DNA of 47,900 bases, taken from assembly GCA_020721965.1 (NCBI GenBank), contig DYLS01000026.1, positions 1-47,900 on the forward strand, written 5' to 3'. Source of the DNA: Blastopirellula marina. Lineage in GTDB: Bacteria > Planctomycetota > Planctomycetia > Pirellulales > Thermoguttaceae. A program made the position numbers and the translations under genes. Position 1 is the stretch's first letter. Each line of letters starts with the position of its first letter. The notes under the pieces are model-generated. The model saw only the letters and a list, made by a program, of their open reading frames with translations, was not told the origin of the DNA and searched no databases. Shown here in pieces: positions 2,209-47,900 of the stretch.

Positions 2209-2613
2209 TGATCGCACCCCTTGGAAAAGCGATGGAGAGATCTGCGCGGATTCCTCTAAACACCTCCACGCAAACGATAACTCTACTATTGGTAACCGGT
2301 CACAGAATATACGGAGCGTCATGCCCCGGCGGACACGGCATCTCATGGTCCCCTTGACCAATCGACGGCTACGAACAGAGCCCGTTTACCGTATGCCTCG
2401 TGGAAACAGGCCGTTTTCGGCACTATTCCATCCGTGAACGGTTACTTCTATTGTAACCAGCCGACTTTTAACCAGTCGGCGGGGGTGTGCCGCGGAAGGG
2501 ATGCGGTGATCGCAGCGCCGCGGCCGAGACCGGAGGCTTGGGCCGAGACCGGCGGAAGATACTAGGGCAGATCAGGCGGACCCTAGGGCAGATCAGGCGG
2601 AGGCGAGGGCAGA
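2209..2613. other. Gap between ATPase and barrel protein: mobile element, stem-loop, tandem arrays
   Basis: This 405-bp gap holds the IS66-like miniature element at 2292-2445, a stem-loop (GCCGAC 2460-2465 with GTCGGC 2475-2480, T-rich loop), and two short tandem arrays. These are two units of CCGAGACCGG at 2524-2560 and the 21-bp array at 2563-2618. No credible gene was seen. Confidence 0.7.
2292..2445. mobile_element. IS66-like miniature element, copy A (154 bp)
   Basis: It begins GTAACCGGTCAC and ends GTGAACGGTTAC, inverted repeats with one mismatch in 12. It is flanked by near-perfect 8-bp direct repeats TACTATTG (2284-2291) and TTCTATTG (2446-2453). The right 110 bp or so aligns with copies B (4935-5067) and C (19114-19267). 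It carries no ORF of note. GTAA ends with 8-bp target duplications are the known hallmark of the IS66 family, so this looks like a non-autonomous derivative. It lies 84 bp upstream of the ATPase start. Confidence 0.8.
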
Positions 2614-4819: not shown

Positions 4820-4934
4820 TGTGTCTTCCCCAATAAAGCGACTTGCTAGACAAAACACGAAACAGAGCCAAAACCGTACTGGATGCGCTGAAATGCCGCC
4901 GCGACTGTGAAGGGCGGCACGCATTGCCCAGGGC

Positions 4935-5067
4935 GCAACCGTTCAGGAACGCTCGGGGACCACAACAGCTTGTGGTCTCCTTGAGCAATCGGCGGATCAA
5001 AGCGATTTTGCCGCGCGGCTCGTGCAAACACCGCGTGTTCCGCGCTATTCCACCCGTGAACGGTTAC
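4935..5067. mobile_element. IS66-like miniature element, copy B (133 bp)
   Basis: Left end GCAACCGTTCAGGAAC, right end GTTCCACCCG.. to GTGAACGGTTAC (inverted). A perfect 8-bp direct repeat CCCAGGGC flanks it (4927-4934 and 5067-5074, overlapping the last base). It is about 20 bp shorter than copies A and C, with the deletion in the left third. It sits between the DUF1559 and lipoprotein genes, upstream of the lipoprotein. Confidence 0.8.
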
Positions 5068-5087
5068 CCAGGGCAAACCTCAGGACT

Positions 5088-7994: not shown

Positions 7995-8095
7995 GCAGCG
8001 TAAAGTCCGCCTGATTGCGTGATGTGCCCAGCATCGCCGGGCGGCGCCACGTCCTACGCCCACAAGACGCCGCGCGCGGCAATCACCTCGGGGCC
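7995..8095 (-). repeat. 3'-flank repeat, copy 1
   Basis: On the minus strand it contains CGATGCTGGGCACATCACGC followed by AATCAGGCGGACTTTACGCTG. It shares core and ends with the copies near 14095, 24460, 38692 and 47748. It lies just after the ugd stop and 15 bp before a GTAACC-ended element. Boundaries are approximate. Confidence 0.65.
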
Positions 8096-8109: not shown

Positions 8110-8364
8110 GTAACCGTTCATAGCTGAGCCATAACGGAAAAGATTTGCGAAACAACGCGAGTTGTTCAGATGTCCCCAAGATTCTTTGAGTGGGCAACGG
8201 AATGTCATTTCGACGAGCACAACGGTGTCATTTCGACGAGCGCCAGCGAGGAGAAATCTAAACCCTTTCGAGAAGACCTGTCGCTTCGCGAGATTTCTCG
8301 CTTCGCTCGAAATGACGAGAGGGCAGGCCGTTTGGCAATCACGAGAATCCCCGTGGACGACTAC
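8110..8364 (+). mobile_element. GTAACC-ended element with GTCATTTCG palindrome, copy E1 (255 bp)
   Basis: It starts GTAACCGTTCATAGCTGAGC and ends GTGGACGACTAC, an imperfect inverted end. Flanks TAAAAAAG (8102-8109) and TAAAATCG (8365-8372) agree at 6 of 8 positions. Inside are long inverted arms, GTCATTTCGACGAGCG..AGAAATCT (8227-8260) and AGATTTCTCGCTTCGCTCG.. to AATGAC (8291-8316), a common bacterial interspersed palindrome. The same element occurs inverted at 44045-44441. No ORF. Confidence 0.75.
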
Positions 8365-8716
8365 TAAAATCGATGCAGCACCGCACGCTGGGGGAAATGG
8401 CGAGTTTCCCAAACGCCGTGTAACCCCAGCCATGTAGTCGTATAGATAGCGCTATCGCTAAGGCAGCGCTTTCCCGTTGCCCTGCCTACTCTCGTCCCAT
8501 GACGGCAGAGGCCTTTTCTGTGAGAATCGCCGCAATCTTCGGATTGTTCTTGCCATTCACCTTTGCCAAAGGCGCCCTTTGCGGTATTTTTGATTTCTTG
8601 AGACGGCGCGGGGCGACCGGCTCGGATACGCGGTCACCGCGGCTGGGCAACCAAGGTGCGAACTGCCCTCAGCATGTCCAATTCAGATTTGTCAGATTTG
8701 TACGAGGAGTGATACC

Positions 8717-14094: not shown

Positions 14095-14216
14095 CCGCGT
14101 GGTTTGTTGGGTTCAACGGCACCTTATGGTGAGGGGGCAATCTTGGGGTAATGCGACATAACGCCTCGCAACCCATCCCGCGCACGTCATGCGACCAGGC
14201 GGTCTCCGCTCTGTAA
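14095..14216 (+). repeat. 3'-flank repeat, copy 2
   Basis: It starts about 15 bp after the ilvE stop. It contains TTGTTGGGTTCAACGGC, GGGGTAATGCGACATAACG and CGCACGTCATGCGACCAGGC, ending near CCGCTCTGTAA. It aligns with the copies at 24460 and 38692, with one insertion. Boundaries are approximate. Confidence 0.6.
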
Positions 14217-18549: not shown

Positions 18550-19289
18550 TCTGTACCCAAATATGGTTTCGTAGACTCAGGGACAACGAAATCTAGCGCT
18601 AGGTCTGGCCGATCCGCCCCCCTCCCCCGCAACACCAAGCCGCGGCCGGACTCGGTTCGTCGGAGCCGACCCGGACCGGTTCCAGCCGCAAATACGCGAA
18701 CGCGCGAAGAGCAGTTCACCGGGGCTAGCGACCGGGGCTTGGGATACCCTTCTCCGCCGTTGCGCCAGCCAGTCCGTTCCGTCAACGCGCCAGCGAGTCC
18801 TTGCTGCTCCCTTGCCGGCAAGTCCCCCTCACCCAGCGCCGCGATCTCTCAATTATTACGACGCCCCTCCCGCGAGGAAAGCGTGGAAAAAGACATCCGA
18901 GGCGTTAAGCCGCGGAAAACGCGGGTATTCCATCGCCTGGTGGAGACCCCGGATCGCATAAGAGCCGCCCATTTGCGTCCGGGGAAATGCACCTCTACCC
19001 AGCGCTTCGCCGGTTTCCAAACCGATTCCTTTTCGTTACCCTTGAAATTTTAGTTCGCAATGGCGGGTGGACATCGGTATCCGCCAATCCTCGGCAGATC
19101 GAGATTTTGGAGGGCAACCGTTTACGGAACATTCGCGGTGTCGCGATTTTTCGAGCACAACGTCTTGTGGCTCCCTCGAGCAATCCGCGGCTACGATCGG
19201 AGCTTTTTTGCCATACGGCTCGTAAAAACATCGCTTTGTTCGCATTGTTCCACCCGTGAACGATTACTTTCACCTTGGAGGCCTCTTGA
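18550..19289. other. Divergent gap with miniature element copy C
   Basis: The first 560 bp are GC-rich with loose short repeats (for example GCCAGTCCGTTCCGTCAACGCG / GCCAGCGAGTCC near 18765-18805) and no gene. Copy C (19114-19267) and a GGAGG site (19277-19281) fill the end. Confidence 0.6.
19114..19267. mobile_element. IS66-like miniature element, copy C (154 bp)
   Basis: Ends GCAACCGTTTACGGAAC and GTTCCACCCG.. to GTGAACGATTAC are inverted. The length is identical to copy A. TTTGGAGG precedes it (19106-19113), and CTTGGAGG follows 6 bp after its right end (19274-19281), a likely target duplication with a small insertion. It ends 22 bp before the ATG of the deoxyhypusine-synthase-like gene, so it forms most of that gene's immediate upstream region, and the GGAGG of the flanking repeat is the gene's ribosome site. 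Confidence 0.75.
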
Positions 19290-24460: not shown

Positions 24461-24565
24461 TTACAGCGTAGGACGATTTGCTTACCGCAACTTGTTGGGG
24501 TGATGTGGCATAGCGTCCCACAACATACGCTGGGCACGTCATGCAATCAAGCGGACTTTGCGCGG
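24461..24565 (+). repeat. 3'-flank repeat, copy 3
   Basis: TTACAGCGTAGGACGATTTGC starts within 6 bp of the transglutaminase stop, then GGGGTGATGTGGCATAGCG, CGCTGGGCACGTCATGCAAT, and CAAGCGGACTTTGCGC. Same order as the copy at 38692-38792. Confidence 0.7.
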
Positions 24566-38792: not shown

Positions 38793-39031
38793 CGAGTTCG
38801 GCGGTGCCCGGCCAGGCACCCTGGAGTTCGATGGTACCTGCGACCCCGGCCACCCCACCCCCCGGCTTGCGATTCCACAGGGCGGGCGCATCGCACCTGA
38901 CACATTGCGACGGCAGATCGATGCGGCAGATCGAGCCAGGACATGGAGCCGGTAGATCAAGCCAGGCGATCGAGGCGGCAGATCGCACCGGGAGATGGAG
39001 CCATCAGGTCGAGCCGGGAGATCGAAATTGA
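38793..39031. other. Remainder of the gap before the Tyr-rich protein gene
   Basis: GC-rich sequence without a gene, then the 13-bp tandem array 38911-39027, which stops 5 bp short of the stop codon of the minus-strand gene at 39032. Confidence 0.6.
38911..39027. repeat. Nine 13-bp tandem repeats
   Basis: Nine consecutive 13-bp units, consensus CGGCAGATCGAGC (for example 38911-38923, 38924-38936, 38976-38988). The core GGCAGATC also occurs in the unrelated-period array at 2563-2618. Both arrays sit at the 3' end of minus-strand exported-protein genes. Confidence 0.88.
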
Positions 39032-39460
39032 TTATTCCGCCTGCATGGCGGGATCCGGCAATGGCGCGATTTCTTCTGAAACCACGGCCGCCCCAACGCT
39101 CACGAAGGCTTGCGGATCGTTCGGCTCCGCGTGCCACGGATACTCGAAGTAATGGCGGTAGTTATACGGCGCCCGATAATAATACCCGTGGAAGGCCGGA
39201 TAACGATGGATCGTCCGGGGATTGCCGGGATAGCAGCCGAAGCGGGGTTGGTAACAGGTCTGCGGCATGGGACCGAACCAGTCCCCCAACCACGTCTTCC
39301 CCGTAGCCGACTTGATATGCCCCGCCTCGGCGACCGGCACGGCGGGCAAATCCTCGACGTAGGCCACCTCACCGCTCGCCGCGGGCTGCACCACCTCCGT
39401 CTGACCGAACGCCTCCGAAGTAGCCACCAGAAGCAACAACGCGAACATTGTCACCCGCAT
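39032..39460 (-). CDS. Tyr/Pro-rich exported protein
   Basis: 142 residues from ATG 39460; AGGAAGGA lies about 8 nt upstream. The signal peptide MRVTMFALLLLVATSEAFG is cleaved before Gln-Thr-Glu. The mature part contains a Tyr/His/Arg/Pro-rich segment (residues about 75-120: HRYPAFHGYYYRAPYNYRHY) and an acidic tail with AVVSEEIAPLPDP. Such low-complexity Tyr-rich exported proteins are common in planctomycetes and may be envelope or coat components. No defined domain; function unknown. Confidence 0.72.
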   Translation of the reverse strand: MRVTMFALLLLVATSEAFGQTEVVQPAASGEVAYVEDLPAVPVAEAGHIKSATGKTWLGDWFGPMPQTCYQPRFGCYPGNPRTIHRYPAFHGYYYRAPYNYRHYFEYPWHAEPNDPQAFVSVGAAVVSEEIAPLPDPAMQAE

Positions 39461-43471: not shown

Positions 43472-44044
43472 TAACACGGTTCCTTTCTGACAGTTACCGA
43501 CCTTTTGTGAAATCAAACGCTCACGAGCTGACCCGAATCCGGCAACGAGCACTTCGCTCTCAAATGAAGTTATACACCGATTCACCCCGTGCGGTCACAC
43601 AAGGGCATCCACCCAATGGCATCCGGCGGAAATCGCTGGCTTTTGACGCTCGCCATGACAACCGCTTACAACCGGCAAAAATCTCTGCTCCAAATCGACG
43701 CACCGCCCCTTTTCGACGGCGAACGCCAGGGGCCGACACAACCTTGCGCTACCGGGCGACTAGCAGCCAACCCATACTTCGAAAAGACCACGTCGATCTT
43801 GATACCCGGCTGCCAAAAATCATACCAACCGCGGGCGGCTTACACAGACTCCGGATTATACGAAGTCTTGCTCACAAAATCGAGACCAAGGCCATTGGAG
43901 TTCGAGCATTGTGGAAGCGGCCGAGGGGGAAGATTCTTTGTCCTGGGTGAAAGAATCGGCCAAGTTGGGCGGCGAGTCAGCCGAACCGGCGAACAGGGAG
44001 GTTCCAAGATGGTGATCCACGAAGGGCACGAAGAAACACCAAGG

Positions 44045-44441
44045 GTCGTCGTTCACTGGCGTTCTCGTCACTGCAAAACGGCTCGCCGAGACGCAAGTGG
44101 CCTGCCCCTTTGTCATTTCGAGCGAAGCGAGAAGGCTTCTCGACAGGGGGCAAGATTTCTCCTCGCCGCCGCTCGTCGAAATGACATCGCCGGCACTCAA
44201 TATGACATCGCCGGCACTCAATGACATGGCCGGCGCTCGTCAAAATGACACTGCTGGACATCGTCGAAACGACAGTCCATTCAAGCCTACGGAACCACTA
44301 AACAACCCTAAGGAAGGTCTAGACAACCATTGGGAACGTCTGAACAACCCTGAGACACGTCTGAACGATCCTTGGGAACCGCGGAGCAACCCTCGTTGTT
44401 TCACAAATCTTTTCCGCTATAACTCAGCTGTGAAGGGTTAC
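44045..44441 (-). mobile_element. GTAACC-ended element, copy E2 (397 bp) with internal tandem arrays
   Basis: An inverted relative of 8110-8364. Right end TGAAGGGTTAC (44431-44441), left end GTCGTCGTTCAC. It is flanked by a perfect 8-bp direct repeat CACCAAGG (44037-44044 and 44442-44449). Shared blocks with E1 are AGCTGAG.TATA.CGGAAAAG, GTCATTTCGAGCGAAGCGAG, and GAGAA..CC. to GACGAC. It is longer than E1 because of internal repeats: ATGACATCGCCGGCACTCA (twice plus variants, 44180-44240) and the 21-bp array 44296-44400. Confidence 0.78.
44296..44400. repeat. Five 21-bp tandem repeats inside element E2
   Basis: Units at 44296, 44317, 44338, 44359 and 44380, each 21 bp, consensus GTCTGAACAACCCTTGGGAA plus C. 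The fifth is degraded. Absent from the sister element at 8110-8364. Confidence 0.85.
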
Positions 44442-47747: not shown

Positions 47748-47848
47748 ACGCCAGCGCACAGTCCGCCTGACGGCATGATATGCGCAGCATGGATTGCCAG
47801 GCGATGCCAGACGCTGTGGCCCATCACTACACGAGATGTTGATCCAAA
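47748..47848 (-). repeat. 3'-flank repeat, copy 5
   Basis: On the minus strand it reads GATCAACATCTCGTGTAGTG, then CCATGCTGCGCATATCATGC and CGTCAGGCGGACTGTGCGCT. It starts 40 bp after the PqaA-family stop and directly abuts a GTAACCGTTCAC end at 47850. Boundaries are approximate. Confidence 0.65.
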
Positions 47849-47849
47849 C

Positions 47850-47900
47850 GTAACCGTTCACGGGGGGGAGTCGTTCACAGGGATTCACCTCATTGCAAAA
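47850..47900 (+). mobile_element. Left end of a GTAACC-ended (IS66-like) element, cut by window edge
   Basis: GTAACCGTTCACGG (47850-47863) matches the terminal inverted repeat of copies A-C, followed by AGTCGTTCACAGGGATTCAC. Whether it is another miniature element or a full transposon cannot be seen. Confidence 0.65.

What the first reader, a model, noticed from the sequence alone, without database searches (positions are those of the whole stretch)
2292..2445. IS66-like miniature elements: three short copies with GTAACCGTTCAC ends and 8-bp duplications
Copies at 2292-2445 (154 bp), 4935-5067 (133 bp) and 19114-19267 (154 bp) share ends and interior. Their flanks repeat 8 bp: TACTATTG/TTCTATTG, CCCAGGGC/CCCAGGGC, and TTTGGAGG/CTTGGAGG (offset by 6 bp). 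GTAA ends plus 8-bp duplications are the signature of the IS66 family, but no transposase is present. The degree of divergence suggests several rounds of spread.
Basis: partly seen in the sequence, partly recalled or inferred. Interest (0 to 1): 0.72.

Follow-up and report, generated by a model that had tools for sequence, protein, structure and literature searches.

The report
Miniature transposons with IS66-type ends
The three short repeats are copies of a small non-coding mobile element that has spread to more than a hundred places in this bacterium's genome, using the end signal and 8-base target duplication of IS66 insertion sequences; it is a well-supported but ordinary kind of element.

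Summary
Three related copies lie at 2292-2445, 4935-5067 and 19114-19267. They belong to a 154-bp family with at least 127 matches in this 4.95-Mb assembly. The end motif GTAACCGTTCAC occurs 156 times, against 3 for the reversed control. Of 102 near-complete copies, 50 have an adjacent 8-bp direct repeat matching at 6 or more positions (15 perfect), against 0.65 and 0.04 expected. Four identical copies at different sites each carry a perfect duplication, so movement was recent.

Single-gene IS66 elements with the same ends exist in relatives G015 (1,510 bp, 8-bp duplication) and G026. The window's genome has only truncated IS66 pieces with these ends and no IS66 catalytic domain.

Best reading: MITEs mobilised in trans by an IS66 (ISBst12-like) transposase. 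Trans-mobilisation is inferred. No clean empty site was found, and other motif-rich genomes (G012, M30B19) also lack a matching IS66 among the loci seen. New member of a known kind.

The parts
2292..2445 (+). family-1 miniature element, 154 bp, ends GTAACCGGTCAC / GTGAACGGTTAC
   Evidence: the copy is in the model's training set
2284..2291 (.). left copy of target duplication TACTATTG (7 of 8 with right copy 2446-2453 TTCTATTG)
2446..2453 (.). right copy of target duplication TTCTATTG
4935..5067 (+). family-1 miniature element, 133 bp, with internal deletions against the consensus
4927..4934 (.). left flank CCCAGGGC; strictly adjacent right flank 5068-5074 is CCAGGGC (7 bp; 8 if the element's last C is shared)
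5068..5074 (.). right flank CCAGGGC
19114..19267 (+). family-1 miniature element, 154 bp
19106..19113 (.). left flank TTTGGAGG; candidate partner CTTGGAGG at 19274-19281, 6 bp away from the element end, uncertain
8110..8365 (+). second-family element with the same left end (GTAACCGTTCAT); right end decayed, outer limit approximate (inner repeat GTGGACGACTACT at 8353-8365)
44044..44441 (-). second-family element (left end GTAACCCTTCAC at 44441 on the minus strand); right end decayed, limit approximate
47850..47900 (-). right end of a further second-family element, cut by the window's end

Best explanation
[quoted passage not shown] They have about 12-14 bp terminal inverted repeats beginning GTAACCGTTCAC, no coding capacity, and produce an 8-bp target duplication on insertion. 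A DDE transposase of the IS66 family, single-gene ISBst12-like type, recognises the ends and inserts the element elsewhere. Shown: end conservation, 8-bp duplication, high copy number, recent movement of one subgroup, existence of IS66 elements with the same ends in relatives, and truncated IS66 pieces with the same ends in this genome. Inferred: that such an IS66 transposase moved these copies in trans, and that an intact copy was present in this lineage until recently or is missing from the assembly.
For: 156 occurrences of the exact 12-mer against 3 for the reversed control. 127 matches to a family-1 model; only 150 of 2242 candidates were scored, so this is a lower bound. Duplication length is 8 bp: 15 of 102 perfect, 50 of 102 at 6/8 or better, against 0.04 and 0.65 from mispaired flanks. 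Four identical copies at C4, C112, C167 and C264 with perfect but different duplications. G015:C24 carries a 1,510-bp element with the same ends, CGCCGGCG duplication and a 487-aa protein with DDE_Tnp_IS66, zf-IS66 and DUF6444; G026:C954 carries a 1,494-bp one with a 468-aa protein, 63% identical to the first. In the window's genome, two pieces hold the 5' end of the same kind of IS66 (C154, C280; 89% alike) and two hold a 65-bp stretch with the 3' end (C98, C120; 94% alike). C71:9605 joins an IS66 5' end (87 bp, 79%) to interior sequence of the second family. Published IS66 features: 8-bp duplication and GTAAGCG ends in Frankia (PMC11946415, passages); single-ORF ISBst12-group ISDge4 with ends GTAACTGCTCAGCA and an 8-bp repeat (PMC12898284, passages).
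Against: No intact IS66 transposase in the window's assembly. G012 has 38 motif copies and no PF03050 match. In M30B19, where 46 of the 72 pattern stretches lie, the IS66 loci returned have GTAAGCGTACAC or GTAAGCGTCCAC ends (10 of 12 positions alike), and none has GTAACCGTTCAC. Acidobacteria MAG G041 has elements with these ends but no IS66 match. Of 30 IS66 loci examined in relatives, 4 carry the exact end motif near the gene. The G026 element shows no duplication. The miniature elements share only the outer 12 bp with the IS66 elements; positions 14 on differ. No clean empty site was found. An identical pair of copies (C60, C196) lacks a duplication.
Confidence: 0.82

Rival explanations
1. 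The elements are MITEs, but the transposase that moves them belongs to another family with 8-bp duplications, or to a GTAAGCG-ended IS66 subgroup that acts across subgroups.
For: Motif-rich genomes without a matching IS66: G000, G012, and M30B19, whose IS66 loci have GTAAGCGTACAC/GTAAGCGTCCAC ends.
Against: The only complete transposase elements seen with exactly these ends are IS66 (G015, G026), and IS66 pieces with these ends lie in the window's genome. A non-IS66 gene between such ends was not systematically searched for.
Confidence: 0.13
2. The repeats are non-mobile structural or regulatory repeats (REP-like or RNA elements) kept at conserved positions.
For: Intergenic position of the three window copies between called open reading frames; interior conservation nearly as high as the ends across 102 copies (0.79 interior against 0.89 and 0.84).
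Against: 8-bp duplications at scattered sites, recent identical copies, no match by BLAST in 20 relatives including three of the same genus, no supported consensus structure beyond the terminal repeats and 0 covarying pairs, no Rfam match at these places.
Confidence: 0.03
3. The similarity of the three window copies is a coincidence of short motifs.
For: The window duplications are imperfect and one needs a 6-bp offset.
Against: Ungapped 73-nt similarity, 13 motif hits against 2.45 expected, 127 genome matches.
Confidence: 0.005

Closest known systems
IS66 family, ISBst12 group (e.g. ISDge4 of Deinococcus geothermalis, PMC12898284, passages read)
   Same: GTAA-type ends, 8-bp target duplication, single-ORF IS66 transposase in the G015 and G026 elements that carry the same ends.
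   Different: The window elements are 133-154 bp and encode nothing; only the outer 12 bp are shared with the transposase-bearing elements; end sequence differs from ISDge4 after GTAAC.
Bacterial MITEs such as MITEPsy1 (PMC3189936, passages) and MITEPye1 (PMC11578231, passages)
   Same: Short, non-coding, terminal inverted repeats matching an insertion-sequence family, direct repeats, presumed trans-mobilisation.
   Different: Those were tied to ISPsy2/IS5-like and IS1182 elements and occur in few copies (1-3 per chromosome for MITEPye1); here the ends are IS66-type and copies exceed 100.
163-164-bp element of Pirellulaceae MAG M30B19 (JAGYIQ contigs)
   Same: Same 12-bp ends and right-end CCACCCGTGAACGGTTAC, similar length, 8-bp duplications: 35 of 50 at 6/8 or better, 20 perfect.
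   Different: Interior only 46% identical on average to the window's family, near random after the ends.

Membership tests
MITE | short (under about 300 bp) and no transposase gene | tested here: met
   133-154 bp in the window; commonest length 154 in 43 of 102
MITE | terminal inverted repeats | tested here: met
   GTAACCGTTCAC / GTGAACGGTTAC; 9 terminal pairs in the consensus
MITE | target-site duplication | tested here: met
   8 bp, 50 of 102 at 6/8 or better, 15 perfect, against 0.65 and 0.04
MITE | many dispersed copies with evidence of movement | tested here: met
   127 matches; four identical copies at different sites
MITE | empty site in a related strain | tested here: inconclusive
   no motif in G003 at the place of the 8110 element but no precise junction; left flank only for the C167 copy; 0 junction-spanning hits for 102 joined flanks against the sequences held
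IS66 family | ends starting GTAA | tested here: met
IS66 family | 8-bp target duplication | tested here: met
IS66 family | element encodes TnpC (DDE_Tnp_IS66) | tested here: not met
   the miniature elements encode nothing; met only for the same-ended G015 and G026 elements. So they are IS66-type MITEs, not IS66 elements
IS66 family | transposase acts on these ends | not testable with these tools
   needs a transposition assay
ISBst12 group (single ORF) | one transposase gene, no tnpA/tnpB | tested here: met
   for the autonomous relatives only: a single long annotated-type frame, tnpC, fills 1,464 of 1,510 bp in G015 and 1,407 of 1,494 bp in G026; tnpA/tnpB elsewhere in those genomes not searched

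The most novel reading that the evidence does not exclude
One IS66-type end signal, GTAACCGTTCAC, is a shared mobility tag under which several unrelated non-coding interiors have multiplied independently in different Planctomycetota and an acidobacterial MAG, and in several of these genomes the miniature elements have outnumbered and outlived every intact copy of their autonomous IS66 partner.
Probability: 0.45. Interest if true: 0.5.

Novelty: new member of a known kind. Interest (0 to 1): 0.36.

Why it matters
IS66 elements are common, but in the library searched no paper ties MITEs to them: searches returned papers naming both, and in the passages read none makes the link. If trans-mobilisation is confirmed, this gives a high-copy substrate for studying the ISBst12-type transposases, which need only one protein, and a caution for assembly, since several contigs of this genome begin inside such repeats.

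Tried and rejected
Conserved RNA structure: fold_alignment on 20 copies found only the terminal repeats and no covariation; Rfam gave only a tRNA in the window. Rejected.

Derivation of family 1 by simple internal deletion of the IS66 element: rejected for family 1, since similarity stops after the 12-bp ends. For the second family it remains possible, because C71:9605 starts with 87 bp of IS66 5' end (79%) and continues into second-family interior.

Empty sites: window against G003 C984, C167 copy against eight relatives, and 102 joined flanks against held sequences gave no precise junction. In the second case G003 matches the left flank to 44 bp short of the element and lacks the ends beyond, but its right flank does not align.

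TSD quality against age: correlation with identity to consensus was absent (rho 0.06, p 0.58) and with nearest-neighbour identity weak (rho 0.17, p 0.08); the group with neighbours at 90% or more has 7 of 10 perfect, the 75-80% group 1 of 40.

Rows dropped: of 127 matches, 103 were listed for the duplication count (24 partial or weaker matches were left out) and 102 had enough flank. The model was built from 20 copies, the three window copies among them.

Family 1 in relatives: 58 held loci of relatives gave 3 weak matches (E 0.0014-0.0055), and 72 loci gave 51 at E up to 1 (best 6e-5), many in both orientations, which I read as matches to the shared ends. These 58 were a selection, not whole genomes.

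Full report
Observation. The 12-bp end motif with up to two mismatches occurs 13 times in the window against 2.45 expected. The window's own duplications are imperfect: 7 of 8 at 2292, 7 bp strictly adjacent at 4935, and a 6-bp offset at 19114.

Genome-wide. The window is contig C271 of a 4.95-Mb, 380-contig assembly. The exact 12-mer occurs 73 times forward and 83 reverse; the reversed control 2 and 1. A sequence model of 20 copies finds 127 matches at E up to 0.001, with 150 of 2242 candidates scored, so the count is a lower bound. BLAST with the 2292 copy found 37 matches in this genome and none in 20 relatives, three of them in the same genus. The end motif itself is unevenly spread: 79 in G003, 3 in G001 and 0 in the single-contig G002 of the same genus, and up to 70 (G028) in the family.

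Target duplication. For 102 of the 127 matches I compared the 8 bases on each side. 15 are identical and 50 agree at 6 or more, against 0.04 and 0.65 from mispaired flanks. Perfect repeats of 6, 7, 9 or 10 number 0, 3, 0, 0. An earlier set of 38 elements gave 9 perfect at 8 and 0-1 at any other length from 4 to 12. Target composition shows only a mild preference, with G or C at the last position in 42 of 50.

Age. Mean pairwise identity of 102 copies is 69%; nearest-neighbour identity lies between 70 and 90% for most, and 6 copies have an identical partner. Four of those are one group with four different perfect duplications: recent movement. The window copies are older, 77-89% to the consensus. 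So spread occurred over a long time with a recent episode. Contrary detail: the other identical pair, C60 and C196, has no duplication; the 8 bases left of the C60 copy (TCGAAATC) recur right of the C196 copy after GC, which could mean recombination between copies or a misassembly.

Source of the transposase. IS66 domain PF03050 has no match in the assembly. In 40 relatives 22 have one. Of the 30 loci returned, 4 carry the exact end motif near the gene: G015, G026, G007, G028. G015:C24 is a complete 1,510-bp element with a CGCCGGCG duplication and a 487-aa transposase; G026:C954 is a 1,494-bp element with a 468-aa transposase and no visible duplication. The two proteins are 63% identical; the same-genus G003 protein is 35% identical to the first and its ends differ at two positions each. 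In the window's genome four pieces carry the IS66 type of extended end, GTAACCGTTCACACCCCGG or near it, and encode fragments of the transposase's two termini. So this lineage has held such elements; the assembly holds only remnants. Missing intact copies may reflect loss or failed assembly of a repeat; I cannot tell which.

Results against. G012 (38 motif copies) has no IS66 match. M30B19, a Pirellulaceae MAG with 46 of 72 pattern stretches, has a 163-164-bp element with duplications at 6/8 or better in 35 of 50, but its IS66 loci have GTAAGCGTACAC or GTAAGCGTCCAC ends. The acidobacterial MAG G041 has no IS66 match, while 12 of 12 of its elements have flanks agreeing at 6/8 or better, 9 perfect; several of these share the same 8 bases (GAAACTTC or its reverse complement), so they may be copies of a larger repeat rather than separate insertions. 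These cases leave room for cross-recognition by another IS66 subgroup or a different transposase.

Second family. Motif hits at 8110, 44441 and 47850 belong to a longer element (about 240-400 bp) with the interior motif CATTTCGACGAGCG. One genome copy of 241 bp has a perfect GCCTGATG duplication. C71:9605 joins the IS66 5' end to this interior, a plausible deletion derivative. Several contigs begin within such repeats.

Verdict. I call the elements IS66-type MITEs, probably moved by an ISBst12-like single-gene IS66 transposase. That the organism is a planctomycete is inferred from relatives found and from recall (G002's size, 4,810,751 bp, fits Thermogutta terrifontis from memory); no call named it. 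The kind of system is known; the specific IS66 link with such copy number was not found in print, which cover an open-licence library only, and IS66 reviews such as Gourbeyre 2010 are not held.

Noticed in passing
L154:2863-4060 (Pirellulaceae MAG M30B19, JAGYIQ010000010.1): Tandem array of about seven 163-165-bp elements separated by 8-bp spacers that resemble each other (CGAGTCAC, CGAATAGC, CGATTCGA, CGAGCCGC), as if new copies inserted into the duplicated target of an existing copy or the unit was amplified. Similar short arrays in L156, L164 and L171.
   Followed up: partly
L079:1013-1046 (G013:C2): 34-bp palindromic sequence GTAACCGTTCACGCCCCGGGGAGTGAACGGTTAC: two IS66-type ends almost back to back, perhaps an extreme deletion remnant.
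   Followed up: no
L337 and L338 (G000:C60:20414, G000:C196:49910): Two identical family-1 copies without duplication; TCGAAATC lies left of one and right of the other, suggesting recombination between copies or a misassembly.
   Followed up: partly
window 7996-8034, 47752-47790, 14143-14205, 24495-24557: Another dispersed repeat (AGTCCGCCTGA...GCATGATGTGCCCAGCAT and relatives), found near two of the second-family elements; the left flank of the 241-bp copy L037 also ends gtccgcctgatg.
   Followed up: no
window 38903-39032: Array of seven 13-bp-spaced GATCGAGCCAGGC-like repeats.
   Followed up: no
window about 2555-2620: Short direct repeats of CTAGGGCAGATCAGGCGGA next to the 2292 element.
   Followed up: no
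L234, L235, L229 (G042, G040): IS66 elements with the classical GTAAGCGTACAC or GTAAGCGTCCAC ends in genomes that also hold GTAACCGTTCAC-ended miniature elements.
   Followed up: partly
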